A DNA stretch of 64,000 nucleotides from an uncultured Alphaproteobacteria bacterium (GTDB lineage: Bacteria; Pseudomonadota; Alphaproteobacteria; Caulobacterales; Caulobacteraceae). The notes beneath the pieces were generated by a model. It saw nothing but the letters and a program-made list of their open reading frames with translations, had not been told where the DNA came from and made no database searches. The stretch spans positions 1 to 64,000 of the forward strand of contig CAIVVM010000029.1 of the NCBI GenBank assembly GCA_903909375.1, in the 5' to 3' direction. Positions 4,802 to 62,386 of this stretch are shown one piece after another (the first letter of the stretch is position 1; each line of letters begins with the position of its first letter). Position numbers and translations under genes: made by a program.

Positions 4802-6280
4802 ATGGATCTGGCCGCCCTCCAGCACCTCCTCAGCGAGGTCCCCGGCAAGCGTGTCGCCTGCATTGGCGACCTGATGATCGATCGCTTCGTCTATGGCGGG
4901 GTCAACCGGGTGTCTCCCGAGGCGCCGATCCCGGTGCTGGCCCGCACCCACGAGCTCAAGATGCTGGGCGGCGCCGGCAATGTGGCGCGCAATGTGGCCG
5001 CACTGGGCGGCGCCGTCGCCCTGGTGGGACTCGTGGGCGCCGACGCAGAGGCCCACGAAGCCTCGCGCCTCGTCGAGCAGGAGAGCCCGTGCATCGAAGG
5101 CTATCTGGTCACTGACGCAGATCGCCCCACCACGCTGAAGACCCGGTTCGTGTCCGGCGGTCAGCAACTCCTCCGCGTCGATCTGGAGGAAAGCCGGCCC
5201 GTCATCGGCGAGGTGGAGCAACGACTGATCCGCACCCTGCGCGACGCTGCCCGGGGCGCCGGCGTGATCCTGGTCTCGGACTACGGCAAGGGCGTGGTCA
5301 CAGATGCGGTAGTGGCCGCCGCCCGCGAGGTCGCCGCAGAGACGGGGGCGAAGCTGATTGTGGACTCAAAGGCCCGCTCCTTCGCGCGGTACGGCGATGT
5401 CGACCTGGTGAAACCCAATGCCGCGGAACTGGGTTACGCCACCGAAATGCCCACCGAGACCGACGCCGAGCTGGAAGCCGCCATTGCCCGTGCCCTGGAC
5501 CTCTGGGCGACCCGGGGCGTCCTGGTCACGCGCGCGGCCAAGGGCGTGTCCCTCGGCCTGCGCGGCCAGCCCGTGCGCCACTTCCGGACCACGCCAAGGG
5601 AGGTGTTCGACGCCTCGGGCGCCGGCGATACGGCGCTTGCCGCCATCGGGCTGGCCCTGGCCGCCGGCGCGGAGATCGAGGACGCCATCGGCCTGGCTCA
5701 ACTGGCGTCGGGCGTGGCCGTCAGCAAGGCCGGGACAGCCACCGTCTCGCCGGACGAACTGGTCGACGCCGTGCTCTCGGCCCACACAGCCCAGGTTGAA
5801 GGCAAGGTCGCCACGATCCGCAAGATGACCGAGGTTGTCGCCCGCTGGCGCGCCCAGGGCCTCCGGATCGGTTTCACGAACGGCTGCTTCGACATCCTTC
5901 ACAAGGGACACGTGGCCTATCTGGCCCAGGCGCGGACCTGGTGTGACCGGCTGATCGTCGGCGTGAACTCCGACGCCTCGGTGCGCGCGCTGAAGGGGGA
6001 GGGGCGGCCCGTCAATGATTTGGAATCCCGCGCCCTGGTCCTGGCCGGGCTGCGCAGCGTGGACCTGGTGGCGCCGTTCGAGGACCTGACGCCCATCAAG
6101 CTGATCGAGGCCGCGCGCCCGGACGTGCTGATCAAGGGCGCTGACTATGCTGAAAGCGACGTGGTCGGCGGCGATCTGGTCAAGGCCTGGGGCGGCGAGG
6201 TGCGGCTGGCCGCCATCGTGGAAGGCTATTCCACCACGGCCGCCATCGCGCGGGCCACGAAACCGGGAGACAGCGCTTGA
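4802..6280 (+). CDS. hldE: Bifunctional heptose 7-phosphate kinase / heptose 1-phosphate adenylyltransferase
   Basis: Carries out two steps towards ADP-heptose for the LPS core. Residues about 1-320 form a PfkB-type kinase domain (DRFVYGGVNRVSPEAPIPVL near the start, catalytic DASGAGDTALA loop). Residues about 345-490 form the nucleotidyltransferase domain with GCFDILHKGHV (from residue 361, the H-x-G-H motif) and a C-terminal substrate block. The two-domain length of 492 aa is usual for proteobacterial HldE. The stop overlaps the TTG start of hldD. Confidence 0.95.
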   Translation: MDLAALQHLLSEVPGKRVACIGDLMIDRFVYGGVNRVSPEAPIPVLARTHELKMLGGAGNVARNVAALGGAVALVGLVGADAEAHEASRLVEQESPCIEGYLVTDADRPTTLKTRFVSGGQQLLRVDLEESRPVIGEVEQRLIRTLRDAARGAGVILVSDYGKGVVTDAVVAAAREVAAETGAKLIVDSKARSFARYGDVDLVKPNAAELGYATEMPTETDAELEAAIARALDLWATRGVLVTRAAKGVSLGLRGQPVRHFRTTPREVFDASGAGDTALAAIGLALAAGAEIEDAIGLAQLASGVAVSKAGTATVSPDELVDAVLSAHTAQVEGKVATIRKMTEVVARWRAQGLRIGFTNGCFDILHKGHVAYLAQARTWCDRLIVGVNSDASVRALKGEGRPVNDLESRALVLAGLRSVDLVAPFEDLTPIKLIEAARPDVLIKGADYAESDVVGGDLVKAWGGEVRLAAIVEGYSTTAAIARATKPGDSA

Positions 6281-7278
6281 GCCGCAAATTGATCTTTGTG
6301 ACGGGCGGAGCCGGGTTCATCGGCTCCAACATCGTCGCCAGGCTGGCGCAGGATCGTGACCTCGATGTCGTGGTCTGTGATCGCCTGCGCGAAGCTGATC
6401 TGGGCAAGTGGCGCAACATCGCCAAGCATCCGATCGGCGATTTCGTCGCGCCGGACCAGATGTTCGAATGGCTGGAGAAACGGTGGCGCGAGGTCGAACT
6501 GGTGGTCCACATGGCGGCCGTCTCGTCCACCACGGAGCCGGACGCCGACAAGATCATCCACTCCAATTTCACCCTCAGCCGGGACCTGTTTCGCTGGTGC
6601 GCCGATCACCAGCGCCGGTTCGTCTACGCCTCCTCCGCGGCGACCTATGGCGCCGGCGAGCACGGGTTCGACGACGACAACAGCTATGAGGCGCTGGCCC
6701 GGCTGCAGCCGCTAAACACCTACGGCTGGTCCAAGGCGCTGTTCGATCTGTTCGCCGCGCGCCAGGCGTCGCGCGACTACGCCCCACCGCAGTGGGTGGG
6801 CCTGAAGTTCTTCAACGTCTACGGCCCGAACGAAGACCACAAACACGCCATGCGGTCAGTGGCCTCGCAGATCTGGCCCAAGGTGAGCGAGGGGCATACG
6901 GTCCAGCTGTTCCAGAGCTATCGTGCGGATGTGCCGCACGGCGGCCAGCAGCGTGACTTCGTCTATATCCGGGATGTGGCTGATGTGGTGCGCTGGCTGC
7001 TGGAGAACCCGGATGTCAGCGGAATCTACAACCTGGGTTCGGGCAAGGCCCGCAGCTTCGAGGAGATGGCGCGGGAGGTCTTCAAGGCGGCCGGCAAGGC
7101 GCCCCTGATCGAGTACACCCCCATGCCGTCAATGATCCGCGACAAGTATCAGTACTTCACGGAGGCACGGATGGAGCGGCTGGCCCAGGCGGGCTATTCC
7201 CCCGGCCTGACCTCGCTTGAGGACGGCATCAGTGACTATGTCGGGCGCTATCTCAGCCAGCCGGATCGTTATCGCTGA
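6277..7278 (+). CDS. hldD: ADP-L-glycero-D-manno-heptose 6-epimerase
   Basis: Last step of ADP-L-heptose synthesis. An extended SDR-fold protein with the Rossmann motif GGAGFIGSN near the N-terminus and the catalytic Y-x-x-x-K in TYGWSKALFD; FFNVYGPNE and the HGGQQRDFVYI block are typical of HldD. The start is TTG 6277, forming TTGA with the hldE stop, so its translation is probably coupled. It completes the kdsA-hldE-hldD set. Length (333 aa) is normal. Confidence 0.93.
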   Translation: MSRKLIFVTGGAGFIGSNIVARLAQDRDLDVVVCDRLREADLGKWRNIAKHPIGDFVAPDQMFEWLEKRWREVELVVHMAAVSSTTEPDADKIIHSNFTLSRDLFRWCADHQRRFVYASSAATYGAGEHGFDDDNSYEALARLQPLNTYGWSKALFDLFAARQASRDYAPPQWVGLKFFNVYGPNEDHKHAMRSVASQIWPKVSEGHTVQLFQSYRADVPHGGQQRDFVYIRDVADVVRWLLENPDVSGIYNLGSGKARSFEEMAREVFKAAGKAPLIEYTPMPSMIRDKYQYFTEARMERLAQAGYSPGLTSLEDGISDYVGRYLSQPDRYR

Positions 7279-7280
7279 CC

Positions 7281-8387
7281 ATGGAGAGCCCCGCTCCACG
7301 CCGCCGGGGATGGCTGTTGCAAGGAGCCCTGGGGTTCCTGGCGCTGCTGGCGGCGGCGGTCTTCGTATTCTGGGGCGATCTGGTCTCGACGGTGCTGGAC
7401 CCGAAGGTGCCTTTCCAGACCTACAACCCGCCGCCGCAGCCTGACTACGCCCTGGCAAGCGCATGGTATCTTCGCCCGGGGTCGGTATCGACCCGGCAGG
7501 CCGATATCTTCTTTGTGGCGCCGACAACCTATGACGGCGGTCGGAACTGGAACGCCCGGATCGATCACCCCGCAGCGGCGGCGCAGTTTCGCGAGGTGAT
7601 GGCGCCCAACTATGTGGGGCCGTTCGTCGGCGTCGGTCGGGTTTTCGCCCCGCGCTACCGGCAAGCCAGCCTCTACAGCCTCACAACCCTGCGCGAGGAC
7701 GCGAGAGAGGCGCGCCAGTTCGCCTATGCCGATGTGCGCCGGGCGTTCCGCGACTATCTTGGCCGGGACAACGGCGGTCGGCCGTTTTTCATCGTGGGCG
7801 TGGAGCAGGGTGGCGCCCTTGCCATGCGGTTGCTCTCCGAGGAGTTCGCCAACGATCCCCGGCTGGAGACCCGACTGGTTGCGGCCTATCTGATCGAGAC
7901 CCTCGTGCCTGCGGAGAACCCGCCGCTGCTGCCCTGCGTCGAACGAAACGAGGCGGGCTGCCTTGCGGCCTGGGCGAGTGTGCGTGAGGGCGATTTCGAG
8001 GCGTCCGAACATTTGCGGGACCGGGCCCTGGTGTGGAATACCCAGGGGGAACTCGTGAACCTGAGCCCGCGCCCGGCCATGTGTTTCAACCCCCTGCTGG
8101 GCGCTGTGAGCGATCTGCCGGCGCCGGCGCGGCTGCATCTCGGCGCGGCAAACGCCACCGGGCTGGAGTGGGGCGCACGCCCCGCCTTCATGATGCGCAA
8201 GGTTTCTGCCCAATGCAGGAATGGCGTGCTTGTCGTGAGCCGACCCAGGTCCGCAGACCTGCAGCAACGCGGCAGCTGGGCGGATCGCCGGAAGGTTCCG
8301 GGGTTCAATCTGTTCTATGCGGATCTCGATGCTGACTCGAAGGCTCGCCTTGCAGCCTGGAATGCCCGACAACAGGGCCAACAATAG
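7281..8387 (+). CDS. DUF3089 domain protein, membrane-anchored alpha/beta-hydrolase-like
   Basis: One N-terminal membrane segment (about residues 12-32) is followed by an extracytoplasmic domain of the DUF3089 type (alpha/beta-hydrolase-like): the run DYALASAWYLRPGS..QADIFFVAPTTYDGG is the hallmark, with FIVGVEQGGALA at the position of a nucleophile elbow. The elbow reads V-E-Q-G-G rather than G-x-S-x-G, so hydrolase activity is uncertain. It starts 2 bases after hldD and may share its transcript. The function is not known. Confidence 0.8.
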   Translation: MESPAPRRRGWLLQGALGFLALLAAAVFVFWGDLVSTVLDPKVPFQTYNPPPQPDYALASAWYLRPGSVSTRQADIFFVAPTTYDGGRNWNARIDHPAAAAQFREVMAPNYVGPFVGVGRVFAPRYRQASLYSLTTLREDAREARQFAYADVRRAFRDYLGRDNGGRPFFIVGVEQGGALAMRLLSEEFANDPRLETRLVAAYLIETLVPAENPPLLPCVERNEAGCLAAWASVREGDFEASEHLRDRALVWNTQGELVNLSPRPAMCFNPLLGAVSDLPAPARLHLGAANATGLEWGARPAFMMRKVSAQCRNGVLVVSRPRSADLQQRGSWADRRKVPGFNLFYADLDADSKARLAAWNARQQGQQ

Positions 8388-8406
8388 ACCGACAGGGAAA
8401 GACGCC

Positions 8407-9402
8407 ATGACCAACCGCCAGATCGTGCTGGATCGTCTGCCGCAGGGCGACAAGCTGGCTCCGGACCATTTTGCCCTGAAGGTGGCGGATCGCCCCGTGG
8501 CGGGCGATGGCAAGGTGCTGCTCAAGACCCGTTACATCTCGCTGGACGCCGCCAATCGCGCCTGGATGCAGGGTGCGACATACCGCTCCGCGCTGAACTC
8601 CGGCCAGGTGATGGCGGGAGGTGGTCTTTCGGAGGTGCTGGTGTCTCACGTGCCGCACCTGAAGGCCGGCGATCTGGTCTTCGCCGATGCGGGTTGGCAG
8701 GAGTACGCGGTCATGCCCGGCAAAAACCTCTCCGCGCTGCCGGCGCTCAAGCCCGAGACCCACCTGCTCAGCGTCTATGGCATTGCGGGCCTCACGGCCT
8801 ACTTCGGGCTACTGGAGTGCGGACAGCCTAAGGCCGGCGAGACCGTGGTTGTGTCGGCCGCCGCCGGGTCAGTCGGCTCGATCGTGGGCCAGATCGCGAA
8901 GATCAAGGGGTGCCGGGTGGTCGGTATCGCCGGGGGCGAGGAAAAGGGCCGGTGGCTGACCGAGGAGCTCGGGTTCGACGCGGCGGTGGACTACAAATCC
9001 CCGGAATTCAAACGTCAGCTGCGCGCCGCGGTCCCCGATGGCATCGACGTCTATTTCGACAATACCGGCGGCGACGTGTTCGAGGCCTGCCTCTTCGCCA
9101 TGAAGAATTTTGGCCGTATCGCGTGCTGTGGTGCGCTTTCGCAGTACGACGGCGCGCCGCCGCCGCATGGCCCGCGCGGGATACCGGGGCTGATCGTGAC
9201 CAAGCGACTGAACCTGCGAGGTTTCGTCGTCATGGATTTCGACGACAAGCGCGAGGCCGCGCTTGCCGATCTCCAGGCCTGGGTGGCCGATGGGCGCCTC
9301 AAGGTTCAGGAAGACATCCTCGAAGGCCTCGAGAGCCTTCCTGCAGCCCTGATCGGTCTGCTGGCCGGTGAGAACCGCGGCAAGCGCATGGTGAGGGTCT
9401 AG
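8407..9402 (+). CDS. NADP-dependent MDR-family oxidoreductase (alkenal/prostaglandin-reductase-like)
   Basis: Zinc-free medium-chain reductase of the leukotriene B4 dehydrogenase/CurA type, expected to reduce alpha,beta-unsaturated carbonyls with NADPH. The cofactor-binding run SAAAGSVGSIVGQIAK is clear, with GGEEKGRWL following beta2, and FDNTGGDVFE and GRIACCGALSQYD are typical of the group. ATG 8407 after GGGAAAGACGCC is the best start; the frame is open upstream but overlaps the DUF3089 gene. The next gene begins directly after its TAG. Confidence 0.88.
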   Translation: MTNRQIVLDRLPQGDKLAPDHFALKVADRPVAGDGKVLLKTRYISLDAANRAWMQGATYRSALNSGQVMAGGGLSEVLVSHVPHLKAGDLVFADAGWQEYAVMPGKNLSALPALKPETHLLSVYGIAGLTAYFGLLECGQPKAGETVVVSAAAGSVGSIVGQIAKIKGCRVVGIAGGEEKGRWLTEELGFDAAVDYKSPEFKRQLRAAVPDGIDVYFDNTGGDVFEACLFAMKNFGRIACCGALSQYDGAPPPHGPRGIPGLIVTKRLNLRGFVVMDFDDKREAALADLQAWVADGRLKVQEDILEGLESLPAALIGLLAGENRGKRMVRV

Positions 9403-10488
9403 ATGTCCGTCTTCAGCCCGACCTACCAAGTTGCCCGCCATAAGTTTCGTGATGCGACGGCGGGCGCAGGCGGCGCCCTGTCAAGCTACACGCACCCCGA
9501 GCGAGGTCCCGACGGCGGTGAGCTGACGACGGATGTGGCGTGGTTTGGTCCAGCTGACGCGCAGGCGGTGCTTGTTCTGGTGTCAGCGACGCACGGGGTC
9601 GAGGGCCATTGCGGCTCGGGCGCACAGATTGACTGGATACGTAGGGGCGAGGCGGCCCGTCTGGCGCCTGGCGTCGCCGCCCTGGTGGTTCACGGGCTGA
9701 ATCCCTACGGCTTCGCCTGGAGCCGTCGTGTCACCCACGAGAATGTCGATCTGAATCGCAACTTCATCGACTTCTCCGCGCCGCTCCCTGCCAATCCGGA
9801 GTACGACCGGCTCGCCGAGGCTGTCACGCCGACATCCTGGTCGGCGGAGGCCCAGGCCGCCTCACGTGCCACCATCCTGGCCTATGCGCGCGAAAACGGG
9901 TTTCCAGCCATGGTGCAGGCCTTGAGCGGGGGCCAATACGCTCATCCGGACGGTATATTCTACGGTGGCCGGTCCGAGACCTGGTCACGTCGGACCCTCC
10001 AGGCCATTTTCCGCGAGCGGCTTTCCGCAGCCTCCGACATCGGGATCATTGACTACCACACGGGCCTGGGTCCGGTCGGCTATGCGGAGCAGATTGTCAG
10101 CGCCGGGCCTGAGACAGAGGCTTACCGTCGCGCCGCCGCCTGGCACGGGGCGGCCGCCGCCAGCATTGACGGGGGTGATTCGGTTTCGGCCAAGCTGGCC
10201 GGCGACTGGCTGGGCGCCATTCCGGGGTTTCTGTCGCATGCCTGCGTCACGGGCATTGCGCTGGAATATGGCACCGTCGACACCACCAAGGTGATGGATG
10301 CCCTGCGCGCCGACAACTGGCTGCACGCGCGTGGCGACCCGCTGGGTCCCGACGCCGCCGGGATCAAGGCGCAGATTCGCGCCGCCTTCTACGTTGATGA
10401 TGACCTTTGGCGCGGCATGGTGCTGGGCCAGTCGTTGATCGCAGCGCGGCAGGCTGCGGCCGGACTGAAGCGCGCGATCAAGGCGTAG
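9403..10488 (+). CDS. DUF2817 family M14-like metallopeptidase
   Basis: Carboxypeptidase-like zinc enzyme fold. Zinc-ligand candidates are visible in SATHGVEGHCGSG (H..E) and in IDYHTGLG, with ENVDLNRNF matching the N-x-D-L-N-R-N block of succinylglutamate-desuccinylase/M14 relatives, and ALEYGT near the C-terminus. No signal peptide is seen, so it is probably cytoplasmic. The ATG follows the preceding TAG with no gap. The substrate is unknown. Confidence 0.8.
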   Translation: MSVFSPTYQVARHKFRDATAGAGGALSSYTHPERGPDGGELTTDVAWFGPADAQAVLVLVSATHGVEGHCGSGAQIDWIRRGEAARLAPGVAALVVHGLNPYGFAWSRRVTHENVDLNRNFIDFSAPLPANPEYDRLAEAVTPTSWSAEAQAASRATILAYARENGFPAMVQALSGGQYAHPDGIFYGGRSETWSRRTLQAIFRERLSAASDIGIIDYHTGLGPVGYAEQIVSAGPETEAYRRAAAWHGAAAASIDGGDSVSAKLAGDWLGAIPGFLSHACVTGIALEYGTVDTTKVMDALRADNWLHARGDPLGPDAAGIKAQIRAAFYVDDDLWRGMVLGQSLIAARQAAAGLKRAIKA

Positions 10489-10490
10489 CG

Positions 10491-12566
10491 CTAACCCGCG
10501 TCCCTCAATCCGGCTCCGGCCTTCCAGTCAAAGAGTTCCTGCAGGATCCTCAGCGCGAGCCCGCGTTGGCTGGTCAGATCCGGATCGCGGGCGATGATCA
10601 GTCGCGCGTCATCGCCGGCCACGGCGATCAGGTCCCGATGGGCAAAGGCGTCAACGAAGACGTAGTCGGGCAGGCCGGACTGGCGAAGGCCCAGCGCATC
10701 GCCGCCGCCGCGCAGTTCGAGATCCCGCTCCGCAATCAGGAACCCGTCGTCCGTGCGGCGCAGGATGTCGAGGCGTTGCTGCGCGGTTTCTGACAGGGGG
10801 GGATCATACAGCAACACGCAGGCGCTCTCGCGAGCGCCGCGCCCCACGCGGCCCCTGAGCTGATGCAGTTGCGCCAGGCCGAAGCGCTCCGCCTGCTCGA
10901 TCACCATGATCGTGGCGTTCGGTACATTGACGCCGACTTCCACGACCGTGGTCGCCACCAGCACCGACAGCTTCCCATCGGCGAAGTCGGCCATCACGGC
11001 GTCTTTCTCGGCAGCCGGCATCTTGCCGTGGACCAGGCCGACGCCGGCGCCGATCACCTCGCGGAGCGCGATCACCCGCATTTCGGCTGCCGCCAGATCA
11101 CTGAGCTCGGACTCCGAAACCAGCGGACAGATCCAGAAGGCCTGCGCGCCACCTGCGGCGGCGTCCTTCAGGCGCGTAACGACCTCTTCCAGCCGGTTCA
11201 TCGGCGCGGCCCGTGTGGCGACCGGCGTGCGGCCGGGCGGTTTTTCCTCGATACGGCTGACGTCGAGGTCGCCGTACATGGTCAGTTCCAGGGTCCGCGG
11301 AATCGGTGTGGCGGACATCGCGATGACGTGGACGCTCTCGCCCTTCGCCTGCAGTCGTTGCCGCTCCGCCACCCCGAAGCGGTGCTGTTCGTCAATCACC
11401 GCCATCTGCAGGTTCTGGAAGACCACGTCGTCCTGGAACAGCGCGTGTGTGCCCACCGCCACCTTGATCGATCCGGTGGCGAGCCCCCTCAGCTTTTCGG
11501 CGCGGGCGGCGCCCTTGTCGCGGCCGGTCAGCAGGATCACCCCGATGCCGTGCGCCGTCAGCGGGCCGGAAATTGTTTCAAAGTGTTGACGGGCCAGGAT
11601 TTCGGTGGGCGCCATCAGGGCGTTCTGGGCGCCGGAGTGCGCCACATCGGCCATGGCGCACATGGCCACTACCGTCTTGCCCGATCCGACGTCGCCCTGA
11701 ACCAGTCGACTCATGCGCTCGCCGGCGATCAGATCGTTCCTGATTTCGCGCAGCGCGCGGTCCTGTGCGGCGGTGAAGCGGAACGGCAGTCCGGCGCGAA
11801 TCCGGTCGCCCAGATCCCCCATCGCAATCCGCGCCGCGGGCTCCCGCCGCCTCGCCGCCTTGCGCTGGGCCATGGCCAGTTGATGCGCCAGCAACTCATC
11901 ATAGGCCAGACGTCGACGATGGCGGCTGAGCGGGGACAGGTCTGCTTCGTTCTGTGGGGCGTGCAGGCGCTCCAGCGCCTCCCGCCAGGTCGGAAACTGC
12001 TCCCGCGCCAGCCATGCCGGGTCCTGCCACTCAGGCAACTCGGGCGCACGGGACTGGGCCTCCACGACGAACCCGCGCACCCGGCGTGGCGGCAGGCCCT
12101 CGGTAGCCGGGTAGATCGGCTCGACCTGCGGAATGTCTCCGGCCTTTTCCGGCGCCACCATGTAGTCCGGATGCACCATCTGCAGGCCATATTGGGAAAG
12201 CTCGACCTTCCCCGAGACGATCCGGCGCGCATTCACCGGGTGACGTTGCTCGAGCTGGCCGCCGTAGGCGCCGAAGAACACCAGGCTCATGAACCCGGTC
12301 TGGTCGAACACCCTTATGCGGGTAGGGCGGGCGGCGGATCGGGAAACCTGGAGGGACTCCACCACCACCTCAAAGGTCATTACCTCGCCGTCCAGCGCCG
12401 CCGCGATCACCGAAGGCGTCCGCCGGACCACGGAATGCGGCTGCAGCCACAGAACATCGCGCACCAGCGGGCCGGCCAGGCGTTCCAGCAACGGCGCCAC
12501 GCGCGGACCCACGCCTTTCAGGGACGTGACCGACGAGAACAACGGGAAAAGAATCTCAGGCCGCAT
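10491..12566 (-). CDS. recG: ATP-dependent DNA helicase RecG
   Basis: Remodels stalled replication forks and Holliday junctions. The N-terminal wedge/OB domain (about residues 30-230) precedes the helicase: Walker A in QGDVGSGKTVVA, DEQH box in IDEQHRFGV, motif III SATPIPRT, and the C-terminal RGRVGRG block. ATG 12566 gives the canonical MRPEILFPLF..L.GVGP start; an in-frame TTG further upstream is not needed. It is divergent from sdhE and converges on the DUF2817 gene with 2 bases between the stops. Confidence 0.95.
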   Translation of the reverse strand: MRPEILFPLFSSVTSLKGVGPRVAPLLERLAGPLVRDVLWLQPHSVVRRTPSVIAAALDGEVMTFEVVVESLQVSRSAARPTRIRVFDQTGFMSLVFFGAYGGQLEQRHPVNARRIVSGKVELSQYGLQMVHPDYMVAPEKAGDIPQVEPIYPATEGLPPRRVRGFVVEAQSRAPELPEWQDPAWLAREQFPTWREALERLHAPQNEADLSPLSRHRRRLAYDELLAHQLAMAQRKAARRREPAARIAMGDLGDRIRAGLPFRFTAAQDRALREIRNDLIAGERMSRLVQGDVGSGKTVVAMCAMADVAHSGAQNALMAPTEILARQHFETISGPLTAHGIGVILLTGRDKGAARAEKLRGLATGSIKVAVGTHALFQDDVVFQNLQMAVIDEQHRFGVAERQRLQAKGESVHVIAMSATPIPRTLELTMYGDLDVSRIEEKPPGRTPVATRAAPMNRLEEVVTRLKDAAAGGAQAFWICPLVSESELSDLAAAEMRVIALREVIGAGVGLVHGKMPAAEKDAVMADFADGKLSVLVATTVVEVGVNVPNATIMVIEQAERFGLAQLHQLRGRVGRGARESACVLLYDPPLSETAQQRLDILRRTDDGFLIAERDLELRGGGDALGLRQSGLPDYVFVDAFAHRDLIAVAGDDARLIIARDPDLTSQRGLALRILQELFDWKAGAGLRDAG

Positions 12567-21228: not shown

Positions 21229-21368
21229 AGCCGCGCTGGTCGCGCGCCTGACGCGCGTGTTCAGCCCCGGTTCAGCGACGAATGCCTAGATCTTTCATCG
21301 GATCGGACGTCGTATTCTCCCGTCCCTCGAAGCGGCGGCCGGTCCGGATGGACGCAAACCCCCATCGG

Positions 21369-21402
21369 CGGCGCGCCACCTACTAACCCGGGGGGCGCGC
21401 CG
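21369..21402 (+). terminator. Possible rho-independent terminator after the racemase gene
   Basis: A perfect 9-bp GC-only stem (CGGCGCGCC / GGCGCGCCG) with a 16-base loop is followed by TTATGGTT, a weak T-rich tail. It lies 140 bases after the racemase stop and 50 bases before the YihY gene. The rest of the 223-base gap shows nothing I can name. Confidence 0.45.
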
Positions 21403-52809: not shown

Positions 52810-53754
52810 TTAGAGCGCGAGCACCGCCAGCAGCACGAACGCCAGGATCGCCACCGTCTCCATGGCGATCAGGGCCAGAGAGCGCACGCCCACCTTGAAC
52901 AAGTCGCCCAGCGAGGTCTTGACCCCGACGGCGGCGATGGCGGCTACCAGCAGGCCGCGCGAAAGCGTCCCTGCGCCCTCGGCCAGGGCGGCGGGCGGCA
53001 GGCCCGTCGAGTTGATCGCAACCAGGGCCGCGAAGCCCAGCAGGAAGCCGGGGGCCAGTGGCGTGCGCCGCCACCCCGGCCCCGACAGAGCGCTGGCGCG
53101 GAAGGCCAGCGAGACCACCACGATCACCGGCAGCAACAGGGCCACGCGGTACAGCTTCACGATGGTCGCGGTGTCGCCCACCGGCTGCGAGACGCTGTAG
53201 CCAGCCCCCACCACCTGGGCCACGTCATGTATCGTGGCGCCCAGCAGGATGCCGGTCTGCAACTCGGAGAGGCCGAGCGCCGTGGCCAGCACCGGGTAGA
53301 CCACCATCGCCAGGGTCGACAGCGCGGTGACGCCGACCACGGTCAGCAGAGTGTCGCGTTCGCGCGTCGGCGTTGGCGGCAGCACCGCGGCCAGCGCCAG
53401 GGCCGCCGAGGCCCCACAGATCGCCACCGAACCGCCCGTCAGCACGCCGAAGTCCGGCCGCAGGCGCAGGGCCCGCGACAGCAGCCACCCCGCCAGGATC
53501 GTGAAGATCACTCCGGCGGTGACCACCATCACCACCTCGCCGCCCAGGGACATCACCTGCTCGACCGTGATCCGCGCGCCCAGCAGAGCCACGCCCAGCC
53601 GCAACAGGTGGCGCGTCGAAACATCCAGGCCGGGTGTGAACCGCGGGTCCTGCCGGGCGAAGTTCATCGCCATGCCGAGCAGCAGCGCGAACAGCAAGAT
53701 CGGCGCGCGGTAGTGATCGGCCAGCCAGGCCGATGCCATCGCCACCAGCGCCAC
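52810..53754 (-). CDS. YeiH/UPF0324-family putative sulfate exporter
   Basis: 314 aa with about 9-10 predicted helices of the Cons_hypoth698 (YeiH) family; PILLFALLLGMAMNF, LLRLGVALLGARIT, GGSVAICGASAALA and ATIHDVAQVVGAGY are family landmarks. The annotated family role, sulfate export, fits a place among taurine-dioxygenase-type genes that could release sulfite or sulfate, but this is inference. The only start is GTG 53754; the frame is open 60 bases further with family-like residues but no start codon. Convergent with the serine hydrolase. Confidence 0.82.
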   Translation of the reverse strand: MALVAMASAWLADHYRAPILLFALLLGMAMNFARQDPRFTPGLDVSTRHLLRLGVALLGARITVEQVMSLGGEVVMVVTAGVIFTILAGWLLSRALRLRPDFGVLTGGSVAICGASAALALAAVLPPTPTRERDTLLTVVGVTALSTLAMVVYPVLATALGLSELQTGILLGATIHDVAQVVGAGYSVSQPVGDTATIVKLYRVALLLPVIVVVSLAFRASALSGPGWRRTPLAPGFLLGFAALVAINSTGLPPAALAEGAGTLSRGLLVAAIAAVGVKTSLGDLFKVGVRSLALIAMETVAILAFVLLAVLAL

Positions 53755-56684: not shown

Positions 56685-57025
56685 CGCGCCGGGACCCCCA
56701 GCAGGATGGCGGAAAGGATCCGCGCCGGCGGCTGCCGGCCGTCGGCGTGATCTGGGACGACCCCGGCACGCCCACACTCACCGAGCGATTCGGCCGCGAG
56801 GCCCTCGCTGGCGTGGTGCTGCTGGCGCCGGCGAGTTTGGCGGCCGGTGCGCCGGTGATCGTCTCGTGCGGCGAGATGGCCGAGCCCTTTGCCCGCAGGT
56901 TGCGGATCGGCAAGGTCAGCATGGTCGGTCGGATCGAGCGTGACCGCGTCCTTCTGGACCTGCGTACGATGGCCGATGCCGAACTCGGAACGCTTGCGAC
57001 AGCGATCCAGCAGGCCGGTGCATGA
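56685..57025 (+). pseudogene. selA: SelA (L-seryl-tRNA(Sec) selenium transferase) C-terminal remnant
   Basis: The frame in 56685-57025 ends with PFARRLRIGKVSMVGRIERD and VLLDLRTMADAELGTLATAI, the typical C-terminus of SelA (R-L-R..P-V-x-G-R-I-E-D-x-x-L-L-D-L-R). It overlaps the selB start by ATGA, exactly as intact selA genes do. About 350 N-terminal residues including the PLP lysine domain are missing; no start other than GTG 56747 is seen. The N-terminal half of what remains is not clearly SelA. Either a relic or a separate small protein. Confidence 0.6.
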
Positions 57026-58887
57026 GCCGCCGGCTTACCGTGGGCGTCATCGGCCATGTGGACCACGGCAAAACAGACCTGGTGCGCGCCCTGACCGGCA
57101 TGGAGACTGACCGCTTGGAAGAAGAGCGTCGGCGGGGGCTATCGATTGTCCTGGGTTTCGCTTGGTTGGAGGCGGAAGGCGCCACGCTCGATCTGATCGA
57201 TACGCCAGGACATGAGGCCTTCGTTCGCACCATGGTGCTGGGGGCGACGGGCTTCAATGCAGCCCTGTTGGTGGTGGCTGCCGACGAGGGGATCAAGCCG
57301 CAGACCCGCGAGCACCTCGCCATCGCCCGCATCTTTGGTTTGGCGCCGCGCATCGTGGTGGCGGTCAGCAAGATCGATCGCGTGCCACCGGTCGAGCGGG
57401 AGGCGCGGCTGGCGGTGCTTAGTGCTCAGTTGCGGGTGCTGATCGGCGCACCCGCGCACGTGATTGCAACATCTGTTCGGACGGGCGAGGGACTGGACCA
57501 CCTGCGCGCCCACTTGGCGGCCCTACCGCATTCACCCTTGGAGCGCGCGCCTAAGCCTGGCTTCTGGCTTCCTGTCGATCGGGCCTTCAACAAGCCCGGG
57601 TTCGGACTGGTGGTTACCGGCACACTGCACGGCGCGCCCATCCGGACAGGCGATCCGGTGGAGATCGCGCCTGGCCGCCTCCGAGGCCAGGTACGCCAGG
57701 TTCAGGTCCATGGCCGAGAAGTCGCGGTGGCCGAACCGGGCGGACGTGTTGCGTTGAACCTACGACGGATCGCGCTGTCGGACTTGCCGAAGGGGGCCTT
57801 GATCGCAGCGCCTGGCCTGGCCGCCGTGGCTGGCGGCCTTGACGTCCAACTGCGCATCGACCACGACGTGGGCGTGCGACTGAAGACCGGCGCGCGGGTT
57901 CGTCTCCTGACAGGCGGCGTCGATGTGGGCGCCAGCGCGCATCTACTGGATCAGGTCGCGGCCGAGCCCGGCCAATGCAGCTTCGTGAGGCTCCAGACCG
58001 ACCAGCCCATCGCCATGATCCCTGGCGCCCGGTTTGTCCTGCGCCGCCCGTCTCCCGCCGTCACCCTGGGCGGGGGCACTATCCTGGATGCGCTGGACGC
58101 CGCGAGCGCTCGAGTGCGACGGGGCGACCCAGTGATGCTCGACCGACTCACCGCCTTGGCAAAGAACGACCGAAAGGGCGCGGCGCGTATCGCCCTCGCA
58201 GCGGCCGGGTGCCAAGGCTGTTCCGCGGCGGAGATCGCCCGATGGGTGGGTGCGGACGCCGGCGGCGCAGACTTGAACGCCGTCAGGCTGCGCAACGGTC
58301 GGTGGGTCGGGCGAACTGCCCTAGCCGCGCTTGCCGCTCGGTTGGCGGACCAGGTGTCCGAACGGGGCAGGGCGGACCTTTCCGGCGCGTTCCCTCCGGC
58401 GCCACACGAAGCTATAGAGGCCGCCGCCGCCGCGTTGGTGGAACGCGGTGGCTTCCGGATCTCCGACGGGACGCTCCACTCCACGGATGCGTCCACCGAC
58501 CGGATGCTTCAGTCCGACATGGAGCAACAGTTCCGCGCCGCCGGTCTGGTCGCGCGACCTCTGGCGACGATTGTCGGTGAAGACCCCGCCCGTAAGGCCG
58601 CCGTGGGCCAGCTGCTGCGAGAGGGCCGCCTCGTGCGCCTGCGCCACGCCCAAAGCCGCCACGTGCTGCTGCTGCACGAGTCTGCGGTCGCCGATGCACG
58701 GGCCCGGCTGCGCGCTGCGTGGCTCGACGGTGGGGCCTTTACCGTAGCGGCCGTTCGCGACGCGCTGAACCTGACGCGCCGCGATACGCTGCCGCTGCTT
58801 GAACATTTCGACGCCGTGGGCGTCACCTTGCGGCGCGGAGATCTGCGCAAACTCAGGGAGACTCGTTCGATTTTAGGAGGCGATTGA
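57022..58887 (+). CDS. selB: Selenocysteine-specific elongation factor SelB
   Basis: Delivers Sec-tRNA(Sec) to UGA codons that carry a SECIS hairpin. GTPase motifs: GHVDHGKT (residues 11-18), DTPGHEAF and SKID; then EF-Tu-like domains 2/3 with DRAFNKPGFGLVVTGT and the C-terminal winged-helix repeats (about 370-620) that bind the SECIS. At 621 aa it is full length and intact. Its last four codons and stop lie inside the 5' end of the tRNA-Sec gene. A SECIS-bearing selenoprotein gene follows. Confidence 0.95.
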   Translation: MSRRLTVGVIGHVDHGKTDLVRALTGMETDRLEEERRRGLSIVLGFAWLEAEGATLDLIDTPGHEAFVRTMVLGATGFNAALLVVAADEGIKPQTREHLAIARIFGLAPRIVVAVSKIDRVPPVEREARLAVLSAQLRVLIGAPAHVIATSVRTGEGLDHLRAHLAALPHSPLERAPKPGFWLPVDRAFNKPGFGLVVTGTLHGAPIRTGDPVEIAPGRLRGQVRQVQVHGREVAVAEPGGRVALNLRRIALSDLPKGALIAAPGLAAVAGGLDVQLRIDHDVGVRLKTGARVRLLTGGVDVGASAHLLDQVAAEPGQCSFVRLQTDQPIAMIPGARFVLRRPSPAVTLGGGTILDALDAASARVRRGDPVMLDRLTALAKNDRKGAARIALAAAGCQGCSAAEIARWVGADAGGADLNAVRLRNGRWVGRTALAALAARLADQVSERGRADLSGAFPPAPHEAIEAAAAALVERGGFRISDGTLHSTDASTDRMLQSDMEQQFRAAGLVARPLATIVGEDPARKAAVGQLLREGRLVRLRHAQSRHVLLLHESAVADARARLRAAWLDGGAFTVAAVRDALNLTRRDTLPLLEHFDAVGVTLRRGDLRKLRETRSILGGD

Positions 58888-58966
58888 GGTCTGGTGGCCT
58901 CCCAGGTCTTCAAAACCTTGGGCTCGCATCGCGAGCGGTGGGTTCGATTCCCATCCGCCTCCGCCA
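58876..58966 (+). tRNA. selC: tRNA-Sec (anticodon TCA)
   Basis: 91 nt including an encoded CCA. The acceptor arm GGAGGCG pairs with CGCCTCC before discriminator G. The anticodon loop CTTCAAA gives anticodon TCA, flanked by AGGT/ACCT. The long variable arm GCTCGC-ATC-GCGAGC and the T arm GTGGG-TTCGATT-CCCAT are clear. Long variable arm, elongated acceptor/T stack and UCA anticodon identify selenocysteine tRNA. The first 12 nt overlap selB and contain its stop codon. Confidence 0.95.
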
Positions 58967-59040: not shown

Positions 59041-60222
59041 ATGGTGCGGCTGGTCGACCTGCCGGAGTATGAGCGCGAGCACTTGCTCTCCAAAAACATG
59101 GAGCCGTTGGGGCCGACGCCCTGGGTGGACCTTGACCGGCCGCTATCCGAGCGGAAGGTCGCCCTGATCACCACGGCCGGCTTACATTTCCGCGACGACG
59201 AGGGCTTCGAGTTTGCCGACGCGAGCTACCGCGTGATCCCGGGCGACCTGGAGGGCGACGAGCTCGTCATGTCGCACTCCTCGGTCAACTTTGACCGCAC
59301 CGGCTTCCAGGACGACATCAACGTCGTCTTCCCCATCGACAGGTTCCGCGAACTCGCCGCGGAAGGCTTGGTGGGCAGCCTGGCGACCCAGCACTTCAGC
59401 TTCATGGGCGCCGGCCTGCAGCCGGCCATGTACGAGGCCAGCGTCCGCAAGCTGGCGGGGCTGCTCATCAAGGACGCCGTCGACACGGTGTTCCTAACCC
59501 CCGTCTGACCGAACTGTACTCGCGCCGTGAGCGCGATCGCCTACTTCCTCGAAAGCGAGGGCCTACAGACGACGGGGATCAGTCTCGTGCGCGAGAACAC
59601 CGAAGCGCTGCGGCCGCCACGATTCCTGTGGACGACGTTCCCTCTCGGAAGACCCATGGGAACGCCGGGCGACGCGCCGTTTCAGCGCCGCGTCATCCTG
59701 GCCGCCCTGGACCTGCTCAACCGCAAGTCCGGGCCGGTGCTCGAGGACTATCCCGAGGACGCGCCGACCGTAGAGATCGAAGACTATCCCGCCTGTCCGG
59801 TCAGCTTCGCGCGCCCGTCGGCCGATGTGTCCACCTGGGACGCCCGCCTGCGCAACGAGCTTCTGCAGATGAAGCCCTGGTACGATCTTTCGCGCCACCG
59901 CCGGGGGCGCACCACGGTAGGCGTCGCCAAGGCGCCGATCGACGAGTTGGCCCCACGCCTGGCCAAGCTGGTGGACCAGGGCTCGCTCGAAGGGCTCGAT
60001 TTCAAGCCGCTCAAGTACGCGCTCGAGGACCTTAAGGCCTACTATCGCGAGGCGCTGACCGCACAGCCTGGGACCTACGACTTCGCCGAGATCGAGCGGA
60101 CGCTGTGGGACGAAACCGAACTGGGGCGCGCCATGCGCGCGCTCGACGACCTTTTCGCCGCCGATCCGCGGCTGGCGCAGGCGCGGCGCATCATCGCCTC
60201 GCGCGCGGCAAGAAACGACTAG
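59041..60222 (+). CDS. Selenoprotein of the GrdB (glycine/sarcosine/betaine reductase B) family, in-frame UGA = Sec156
   Basis: One 393-residue protein, read through the TGA at 59506-59508. Before it: HSSVNFDRTGF, NVVFPIDRFRELA and VFLTPV; after it U-P-N-C-T-R-A-V, then SAIAYFLESEG, GISLVREN and GPVLEDYPEDAP. This is the layout of GrdB-family selenoproteins, with the redox pair U156-x-x-C159. The family's known members are subunits of anaerobic clostridial reductases; the stand-alone proteobacterial form is, to my knowledge, uncharacterised. A SECIS-like hairpin follows the UGA. First gene of an operon with a TauD-family gene and an MFS gene. Confidence 0.92.
59520..59536 (+). promoter_or_regulatory. 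SECIS-like hairpin for UGA recoding
   Basis: In the mRNA, UCGCGC-CGUGA-GCGCGA forms a perfect 6-bp stem with a five-base loop that contains G-U. It starts 11 nt after the UGA at 59506-59508. Short hairpins with G/U in the loop about this far behind the UGA are what bacterial SelB reads. No bulged U like that of the E. coli fdhF element is evident. Confidence 0.7.
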
Positions 60223-60233
60223 GGAGAACCACG

Positions 60234-61082
60234 ATGCAGATCGTTCCGCTTTCCGACCACATGGGCGCCGACATCTTGGATGTCGATCTGGCGCACCTGA
60301 ACGACGCCGATTTCGCGCGCATCTACCAGGCCTGGCTCGACCACCTGGTCCTGCGGTTTCGGGGGCAGACCCTCAGCGAGGACGACCTGCAGGCCTTCAG
60401 CCAGCGGTTCGGGCCGCTGGAGGAGATGCCGATGGGGCGCATGTCGGAGGAGATGCGCCGCAAGATCAAGAACCGCTACGTCACGGTGATCTCCAACATC
60501 AAGGTGGATGGTCGGCCGATCGGCGGGCTGGGCAACGCCGAGGCCAACTGGCATTCGGACATGAGCTATATCGACAATCCGCCCACCGCGAGCGTGCTGC
60601 TGAGCGTGGAGATCCCGCCGAAGGGCGGGGCGACCTACTTCTCCAATCAATACGCGGCCTATGACGCGCTGCCGGAGGCGCTGAAGCAGCACATCGCCGA
60701 CCTGACGATCAAGCATGACGCGGCCCACACCAGCGTCAGCGAACTGCGGCCGGGCTTCGAGGAGCCGCAGAGCCCGATCGATGCGCCCGGAGCGGTCCAC
60801 CCGATCGTTCGGACCCATGCTGAGACCGGCCGCAAGGCGCTCTACCTGGGGCGGCGCGAGTGGGCCTATGTGGTGGGCCTGCCCGTGGAGGAGAGCGAGC
60901 GGCTGCTCGACGAGCTGTGGTCCTACGCGGCGCGGCCGGAGTTCGTGTGGCGACAGGACTGGCGGGTGGGCGACGTGATCATCTGGGATAACCGCTGCTC
61001 GCTGCACCGGCGCGACGAGTTCGATCCCGCGCTGCGCCGGCTGCTGCGGCGCTGCCAGGTACTGGCGAAGGTGGCCGCGTGA
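60234..61082 (+). CDS. TauD/TfdA-family 2-oxoglutarate-dependent dioxygenase
   Basis: 282-aa enzyme of the TauD/TfdA type with H107-x-D109 in NWHSDMSY, the distal His258 in SLHRRDEF and an Arg-rich end for 2-oxoglutarate. Closer to classical TauD/TfdA in length and N-terminus (VPLSDHMGADI) than the first dioxygenase at 55.6 kb. It follows the selenoprotein gene by 11 bases with GGGAGAA before the ATG, and its stop overlaps the MFS start (GTGA). Confidence 0.9.
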   Translation: MQIVPLSDHMGADILDVDLAHLNDADFARIYQAWLDHLVLRFRGQTLSEDDLQAFSQRFGPLEEMPMGRMSEEMRRKIKNRYVTVISNIKVDGRPIGGLGNAEANWHSDMSYIDNPPTASVLLSVEIPPKGGATYFSNQYAAYDALPEALKQHIADLTIKHDAAHTSVSELRPGFEEPQSPIDAPGAVHPIVRTHAETGRKALYLGRREWAYVVGLPVEESERLLDELWSYAARPEFVWRQDWRVGDVIIWDNRCSLHRRDEFDPALRRLLRRCQVLAKVAA

Positions 61083-62386
61083 CCGCCCCGACGCCGACCG
61101 ACGCGGGGGTCCCCGATGCGCCGCGCGTCACCGATGGCGCGCGCCGCACCGCGCTGACCCTGCTGTTCTTCGCCTACGTCTTCAGCATTACCGACCGCCA
61201 GATCGTCTCGATCCTGTTCCAGCCGATCAAGGCGGAGTTCGGGCTTTCGGACACCCAGCTCGGCCTGCTGGGCGGGCTGGCATTCGGCGTCTTCTACGCC
61301 ACCCTGGGGATCCCCATCGCCCTGGTGGCCGACAAGGGGCGGCGGCGCGAGATCGTGGCCGGCTCGCTGGCCATCTTTTCCGCCATGACGGCGCTGTGCG
61401 GCATGGCGCAGTCGTTCTGGCAGCTGGTGCTGGCGCGGTTCGGCGTCGGGATCGGCGAGGCCGGGGTCAACCCTGCAAGCCACTCGATCATCGCTGACTA
61501 TTACCCGCCAGAGCGGCGCTCGACAGTGATGTCGGTGCTGGCCATGGGCGCCAACATGGGCATGCTGATCGGCCTGATCGTCGGCGGCTTCGTGAGCCAG
61601 GCTTACGGTTGGCGCGCGGCCTTCCTGGTGGTGGGCCTGCCTGGCGTGATCCTGGCGGTGCTGGTTCAACTATTCCTCAAGGAGCCGCCCCGGGGTCTGT
61701 CAGAGGGCCGCGTCGCCAAGAGCGAGGCGCCGCCGCTGGGCCAGTCGCTGGGCTACATGTGGCGCAACCGCGCGATGCGCCACCTGATCGCCGGCTCGAC
61801 GATCTGTGGCGTGGTGACCTATGGCCTGGGCCAGTGGCAGCCCACCTTCTTCATGCGGGTGCACGAGATGCCGGCCTCGCAGGTGGGGGTGACCCTGGGA
61901 CTGTTGTTCGGCGGCGTCGGCGGCGTTGGCGCCCTTTGCGGCGGATGGCTGACCGACCGGCTCCAGAACCGGCGCGCGGCCTGGGGCATGTGGATGATCG
62001 CGGCGGTCATGGTGGCGATGATCCCGCTGCACGTGCTGGCGTTCCGGGCCGAGTCAACCGTGGCCTCCTTGGCGCTGTTCCTGCTTCCGGTGTTCACCTC
62101 GGCCTTCTACCTCGGTCCGTCCCTGGCCCTGGTCCAAGGCCTGGCGCCCCTGCGCATGCGGTCGATCTCGGCCGCGGTGAAGATGCTCTGCATGAACCTG
62201 ATCGGGCTGGGAATCGGGCCGACGGTTGTGGGTGTCCTCAGCGACCTGTTCGAGCCGACCTACGGCCAGGATTCGCTGCGGATGGCGCTGATCGTCATGT
62301 CCCTGCTGCCGATCTGGGCCGCGGTTCACTTCTACATCTGCGGTCGCAACCTCGAGGCCGGACTGGCCAAGGCCCGGGAGGACTAG
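61079..62386 (+). CDS. MFS transporter
   Basis: 435-aa, 12-helix major-facilitator protein. The loop 2-3 motif is ALVADKGRRR, and the first-half blocks DRQIVSILFQPIKAEFGLSDTQLGLLGG and GIGEAGVNPASHSIIADYYPPERR are typical of the spinster-like/phthalate-permease branch common in Sphingomonadales and Caulobacterales. GTG 61079 overlaps the TauD stop, so it is coupled to the dioxygenase and selenoprotein. It probably imports the operon's substrate or exports a product. Confidence 0.88.
   Translation: MTAPTPTDAGVPDAPRVTDGARRTALTLLFFAYVFSITDRQIVSILFQPIKAEFGLSDTQLGLLGGLAFGVFYATLGIPIALVADKGRRREIVAGSLAIFSAMTALCGMAQSFWQLVLARFGVGIGEAGVNPASHSIIADYYPPERRSTVMSVLAMGANMGMLIGLIVGGFVSQAYGWRAAFLVVGLPGVILAVLVQLFLKEPPRGLSEGRVAKSEAPPLGQSLGYMWRNRAMRHLIAGSTICGVVTYGLGQWQPTFFMRVHEMPASQVGVTLGLLFGGVGGVGALCGGWLTDRLQNRRAAWGMWMIAAVMVAMIPLHVLAFRAESTVASLALFLLPVFTSAFYLGPSLALVQGLAPLRMRSISAAVKMLCMNLIGLGIGPTVVGVLSDLFEPTYGQDSLRMALIVMSLLPIWAAVHFYICGRNLEAGLAKARED

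What the first reader, a model, noticed from the sequence alone, without database searches (positions are those of the whole stretch)
59041..60222. UGA-interrupted GrdB-family selenoprotein in a probable aerobe
Two frames that look like separate genes (ending ..FLTPV at 59508, and starting at GTG 59527) are in the same phase across a single TGA. The combined product matches the GrdB family on both sides with the motif U-P-N-C. GrdB is known from anaerobic Stickland reductases; this copy has no GrdA, GrdC or GrdD neighbours and instead sits with O2-dependent dioxygenases. It may be a new type of selenium-dependent redox enzyme.
Basis: partly seen in the sequence, partly recalled or inferred. 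Interest (0 to 1): 0.92.

Follow-up and report, generated by a model that had tools for sequence, protein, structure and literature searches.

The report
PrdB-like selenoprotein with its own decoder
A bacterial gene that looks split by a stop codon really encodes one protein, in which that stop is read as selenocysteine; it belongs to a family best known from amino-acid-fermenting anaerobes but here sits in a bacterium whose genus lives in air, beside oxygen-using enzymes, and what it does there is unknown.

Summary
Of 38 long homologues found in Alphaproteobacteria, 35 have UGA and 3 have Cys at exactly this position (U/C-P-x-C). The three Cys genomes lack selA; 29 of 30 UGA genomes have it. 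Purifying selection acts on both sides of the UGA.

The closest known protein is D-proline reductase PrdB (39% identity over 202 residues, Sec at the same column), not GrdB. It is probably not a Stickland reductase: it scores far below the PrdB cut-off, carries a conserved extra C-terminal region of about 160 residues, and its genome lacks the pyruvoyl partner family PF09338, as do 32 relatives. The closest orthologues, Sec or Cys, keep a TauD-type dioxygenase gene, next door in four of five.

Such selenoproteins have been listed as "PrdB" in surface-ocean surveys since 2005, so this is a new member of a known kind whose aerobic role is unsolved. Substrate and reaction are inference only.

The parts
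59041..60222 (+). PrdB/GrdB-like selenoprotein gene, 393 codons, one in-frame UGA
59506..59508 (+). UGA codon decoded as Sec156 (motif U-P-N-C)
   Evidence: UGA in 35 and Cys codon in 3 of 38 homologues at this position; aligned with the Sec of clostridial PrdB
59520..59536 (+). SECIS-like hairpin: stem 59520-59525/59531-59536, loop 59526-59530 with the G-U at 59527-59528
   Evidence: CGU loop in 32 of 32 distinct UGA copies, absent from the 3 Cys copies; 91% paired against 56% in synonymous recodings
58876..58966 (+). tRNA-Sec gene (selC), anticodon UCA, overlapping the end of selB by 12 bases
   Evidence: (Rfam RF01852, 76.3 bits)
57022..58887 (+). selB, selenocysteine-specific elongation factor, 621 aa
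   Evidence: TIGR00475 259.9 bits, above the cut-off 242.25; Pfam SelB-wing_3
56747..57025 (+). remnant of selA: C-terminal piece (56885-57010), the rest of the gene missing
   Evidence: 61% identity over 46 aa to the full SelA encoded elsewhere in the genome; the same remnant is in the second Phenylobacterium genome
60234..61082 (+). TauD/TfdA-family Fe(II)/2-oxoglutarate dioxygenase, 282 aa, 11 bases after the selenoprotein gene
   Evidence: PF02668 E 5e-66; 61-68% identical genes at or near all three Cys orthologues
61079..62386 (+). major facilitator superfamily transporter overlapping the TauD stop codon
   Evidence: PF07690; 51% identical gene beside the Cys orthologue L085
62515..63261 (+). 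GntR/FCD-type regulator
   Evidence: PF00392, PF07729; 67% identical gene beside the Cys orthologue L084

Best explanation
The gene encodes one selenoprotein of the PrdB/GrdB superfamily, translated by decoding UGA 59506-59508 as selenocysteine. SelB and tRNA-Sec are encoded directly upstream; SelA and SelD come from elsewhere in the genome; a SECIS hairpin whose loop is 59526-59530 recruits SelB (well supported, about 0.97). Inferred (about 0.4): Sec156 is the nucleophile of a two-electron reductase. Its selenolate attacks a small electrophilic substrate or intermediate handled together with the TauD dioxygenase and the MFS transporter, breaking a bond between carbon and a heteroatom or between two heteroatoms. 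The invariant Cys159 resolves the selenium adduct as a Sec156-Cys159 selenenylsulfide, which a cellular dithiol (thioredoxin or glutathione) reduces again. With no pyruvoyl subunit, the enzyme cannot activate amines as Schiff bases the way glycine and proline reductases do, so the substrate must carry its own leaving group.
For: Sec decoding: same-site UGA or Cys in 38 homologues; SECIS conserved and absent from Cys copies; selB and tRNA-Sec adjacent; tRNA-Sec within 5 kb in 14 of 33 UGA loci with fetched flanks and 0 of 3 Cys loci; full selA and selD in the genome; selA in 29 of 30 UGA genomes and 0 of 3 Cys genomes; purifying selection on both sides. Mechanism: Sec156 or Cys, Pro157, Cys159 and Thr160 invariant in the alignment; PrdB has its Sec at the same column with Cys at +3; PF09338 absent from 33 genomes with the positive control ringing three times; TauD neighbour kept whether the residue is Sec or Cys.
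Against: No substrate, product, reductant or expression evidence. The TauD neighbour is conserved only in the closest clade; more distant UGA copies sit among varied catabolic genes, so the association may be recent. The predicted structure was too poor to use (mean pLDDT 43.6) and no relative was found in the PDB by sequence. The window's hairpin alone is only about one standard deviation more stable than shuffles. One UGA genome (G461) shows no selA.
Confidence: 0.6

Rival explanations
1. Same selenoprotein, but the Sec works as a plain thiol-disulfide or peroxide-type redox centre (UxxC like thioredoxin or glutaredoxin) protecting or recycling the neighbouring Fe(II) dioxygenase, with no carbon-heteroatom chemistry.
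For: UxxC/CxxC motif; Cys replaces Sec in three orthologues without loss of the dioxygenase neighbour; most UxxC selenoproteins are thiol oxidoreductases (PMC1088965).
Against: Homology over 200 residues is to PrdB/GrdB, reductive C-N cleaving enzymes, and not to thioredoxin-fold families.
Confidence: 0.3
2. It is a true Stickland D-proline or glycine reductase subunit used by the bacterium in oxygen-poor niches.
For: 39% identity to clostridial PrdB with aligned Sec.
Against: 122 bits against a PrdB cut-off of 300; no PF09338 pyruvoyl subunit in 33 genomes, with a working positive control; extra C-terminal region absent from PrdB; dioxygenase partner.
Confidence: 0.05
3. The UGA is a real stop: two separate genes, or a gene broken by mutation.
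For: Mechanical ORF calling gives two frames.
Against: Conserved UGA or Cys at the same site in 38 homologues, SECIS, dN/dS 0.03 and 0.055 on the two sides, selB and selC adjacent.
Confidence: 0.02

Closest known systems
D-proline reductase subunit PrdB (TIGR04483)
   Same: 39% identity over 202 residues, Sec at the same aligned position, UxxC motif
   Different: PrdB has about 240 residues; this has 393, with a conserved C-terminal region of about 160 residues; no PrdA partner; score 122 against a cut-off of 300
'Proline reductase PrdB' selenoproteins of the Sargasso Sea and GOS surveys (PMC1088965, PMC2398784)
   Same: PF07355 domain, UxxC, widespread in surface waters; a SAR116 alphaproteobacterium carries the long form (L017)
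   Different: Those surveys counted metagenome sequences; no length, operon, partner or aerobic function was reported in the passages read. Whether they are the same long form was not tested.
GrdB/GrdF/GrdH, glycine, sarcosine and betaine reductase selenoprotein B (PF07355)
   Same: PF07355 match above the gathering score, 32.9 against 22
   Different: Only the last third of the Pfam model matches; no GrdE-type partner in the genome, and no GrdA, C or D seen nearby (not searched genome-wide)
Short Cys paralogue in the same genome (C40, L002, N-C-P-V-C-H)
   Same: Same superfamily, PrdB model 90 bits
   Different: About 300 residues, Cys instead of Sec, a separate deep clade

Membership tests
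Bacterial selenoproteins | In-frame UGA aligned with Sec or Cys in homologues | tested here: met
   35 UGA and 3 Cys codons at one site; aligned with the PrdB UGA
Bacterial selenoproteins | SECIS hairpin just downstream of the UGA with G-U in the loop | tested here: met
   CGU loop in 32 of 32 distinct copies; pairing 0.91 against 0.56 recoded
Bacterial selenoproteins | selA, selB, selC and selD in the genome | tested here: met
Bacterial selenoproteins | Selenium present in the protein | not testable with these tools
   needs 75Se labelling or mass spectrometry
Pfam GRDB (PF07355) | Score above the gathering threshold | tested here: met
   32.9 bits against 22
D-proline reductase PrdB (TIGR04483 equivalog) | Score above the curated cut-off | tested here: not met
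   122.3 bits against 300
D-proline or glycine reductase complex | Pyruvoyl-type partner subunit (PF09338: PrdA, GrdE) | tested here: not met
   absent from 33 genomes including this one; positive control rang
D-proline or glycine reductase complex | Reductive cleavage of D-proline or glycine | not testable with these tools
   needs an enzyme assay

The most novel reading that the evidence does not exclude
A PrdB-derived selenoenzyme without a pyruvoyl partner that works in air as the reductive half of an oxygenase pathway, expressed from an operon that also carries its own SelB and tRNA-Sec. The same genome holds a second, diverged SelB and tRNA-Sec pair, so two Sec-decoding systems may serve different messages while sharing one SelA and SelD.
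Probability: 0.2. Interest if true: 0.8.

Novelty: new member of a known kind. Interest (0 to 1): 0.5.

Why it matters
PrdB-like UxxC selenoproteins are among the commonest in surface oceans, yet no function is reported for them outside anaerobic amino-acid fermentation in what I read. This locus gives a compact handle: a short operon with one dioxygenase, one transporter and one regulator, and natural Cys orthologues that keep the dioxygenase. Substrate-finding and Sec-versus-Cys comparisons are therefore directly feasible.

Tried and rejected
Two-gene or pseudogene reading: rejected by the conserved UGA/Cys site, SECIS and selection on both sides. Stickland reductase: rejected by score and by the missing pyruvoyl subunit; the first PF09338 search had no ringing control, so it was repeated with a Peptoclostridium record that did ring. 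PDB sequence searches found nothing. The C-terminal region matched no Pfam family even at E 5. Formate dehydrogenase as another client of the Sec machinery: not found. A single-sequence fold of the SECIS was weak evidence by itself; the comparison across homologues is what counts. The recurrent gene neighbours in distant relatives include selB, selA, a SelD fusion, CoA transferase, molybdenum hydroxylase and GST and gave no common substrate.

Full report
WHAT IS THERE. selB and the tRNA gene overlap by 12 bases, and the selenoprotein gene starts about 80 bases after the tRNA. Before selB lies a shortened selA: its C-terminal piece is 61% identical to the full SelA encoded on contig C24. A full selD is on contig C47. 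All components of Sec synthesis and decoding are therefore present.

IS THE UGA DECODED? Searches of Alphaproteobacteria gave 38 homologues of the same long type, counting the window. In 35 the aligned codon is TGA; in three it is TGT or TGC. The clostridial PrdB of Peptoclostridium acidaminophilum has its own UGA at the same column. Against the second Phenylobacterium genome, dN/dS is 0.031 before and 0.055 after the UGA, so the part behind the UGA is under purifying selection. Behind the UGA all 32 distinct UGA copies keep a hairpin whose loop holds C-G-U 18 to 20 bases after the UGA; the two innermost pairs never vary and the outer ones vary mostly in a compatible way, except one position that is G-G in 14 copies. 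In register 91% of cells are paired; 200 sets of synonymous recodings gave 56% on average with a maximum of 63%; the Cys copies give 61%. The two codons under the loop are GCC-GTN in 35 of 35 UGA copies and in none of the three Cys copies. The GTG that looked like a second start, at 59527, is this loop. Finally, selA is present in 29 of 30 genomes with the UGA form and in none of the three with the Cys form; the exception, G461, has its copy on a 6-kb contig. I take Sec decoding as established as far as sequence can establish it.

WHAT FAMILY? Pfam GRDB matches above its gathering score, but only before the UGA. The NCBIfam PrdB model matches residues 14-226, across the UGA, at E 2e-35, although at 122 bits it is far under the cut-off of 300 for true PrdB. 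The window protein is 39% identical to PrdB over 202 residues. It differs by a C-terminal region of about 160 residues, present in the whole long group and without any Pfam match. No PF09338 protein (the pyruvoyl subunits GrdE and PrdA) occurs in this genome or in 32 relatives, while the Peptoclostridium control record gives three matches. The protein is therefore a relative of PrdB, not a demonstrated proline or glycine reductase.

EVOLUTION. In a maximum-likelihood tree with the Sec column masked, the two Phenylobacterium Sec proteins are sister to the three Cys proteins (support 100/100 for the five) inside a long group otherwise entirely Sec; one change explains the long group. Loss of Sec in the Cys branch is the simpler reading, and L018 still carries GCCGCG where the UGA copies have GCCGTG, though the tree cannot by itself exclude regain.

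CONTEXT. The TauD gene follows after 11 bases and the transporter gene overlaps it. TauD genes 61-68% identical stand directly beside two of the three Cys orthologues and about 5 kb away in the third; a 51% identical transporter, a 67% identical GntR regulator and a 64% identical YeiH-type exporter recur singly. This small module survives replacement of Sec by Cys, which argues that the selenoprotein and the dioxygenase act in one pathway. In more distant relatives the gene often sits with selB, selA or a SelD fusion: 14 of 33 UGA loci with fetched flanks have a tRNA-Sec gene within 5 kb, against 0 of 3 Cys loci. The organism is a Phenylobacterium by kinship to the record CAMCXF010000090.1. 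That this genus is mainly aerobic is my own knowledge, not tested here.

HOW IT PROBABLY WORKS. Shown by sequence: Sec at residue 156, and Cys at +3 invariant. Inferred from PrdB and GrdB chemistry: the selenolate attacks the substrate and the cysteine resolves the adduct. In GrdB-related enzymes the substrate is polarised as a Schiff base on a carbonyl group, and a fluoroacetate-cleaving relative in Synergistota is proposed to use direct attack by Sec on carbon (PMC10838667). Without a pyruvoyl partner, only substrates with their own leaving group, or with a weak heteroatom bond, fit. Substrate, product and electron donor are unknown.

WHAT IS KNOWN. UxxC 'PrdB' selenoproteins were reported in the Sargasso Sea (42 genes) and the GOS survey (235 genes) (PMC1088965, PMC2398784), and a 2026 review still describes PrdB only as a proline reductase subunit (PMC13188914). 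Overlap of selC with selB in Alphaproteobacteria is also known (PMC8124441), and so are genomes with two tRNA-Sec genes or two Sec operons (PMC5330540). The gene is thus a new member of a known kind. What stands open is its function in aerobes and the second, diverged selB and selC pair in the same genome.

Noticed in passing
L080 (G000:C24:52500-72400), 5490-10711: A second Sec locus in the same genome: full selA, a selB only 38% identical to the window's, and a second tRNA-Sec gene. Which message it serves is unknown; no formate dehydrogenase of the TIGR01553 type was found.
   Followed up: partly
L080 5490-7076 (-): The gene after the second tRNA-Sec encodes 528 residues with a thioredoxin-like D-C-H-T-C start and no Pfam or NCBIfam match; relatives occur in 28 of 289 Alphaproteobacteria, one of them with an in-frame TGA.
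   Followed up: partly
window 52810-53754 (-) and L080 3762-4838 (-): YeiH-type putative sulfate exporters (PF03601), 76% identical, stand near both Sec loci, and another near the Cys orthologue L084.
   Followed up: no
window 59041-59505 against 59509-60219: Synonymous divergence from the sister genome falls from 0.37 before the UGA to 0.07 after it, which suggests recombination within the gene.
   Followed up: no
L041 (G232:C4): One homologue has a TAG besides the TGA inside the frame: a broken copy or a sequencing error.
   Followed up: no
G461:C98 (L046, contig of 5967 bases): The only UGA-type genome without a detectable selA; the gene is on a small contig that may not belong to that genome.
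   Followed up: no
window 21298-21401 (+): Match to the Caulobacter small RNA CC1840 (RF01521).
   Followed up: no
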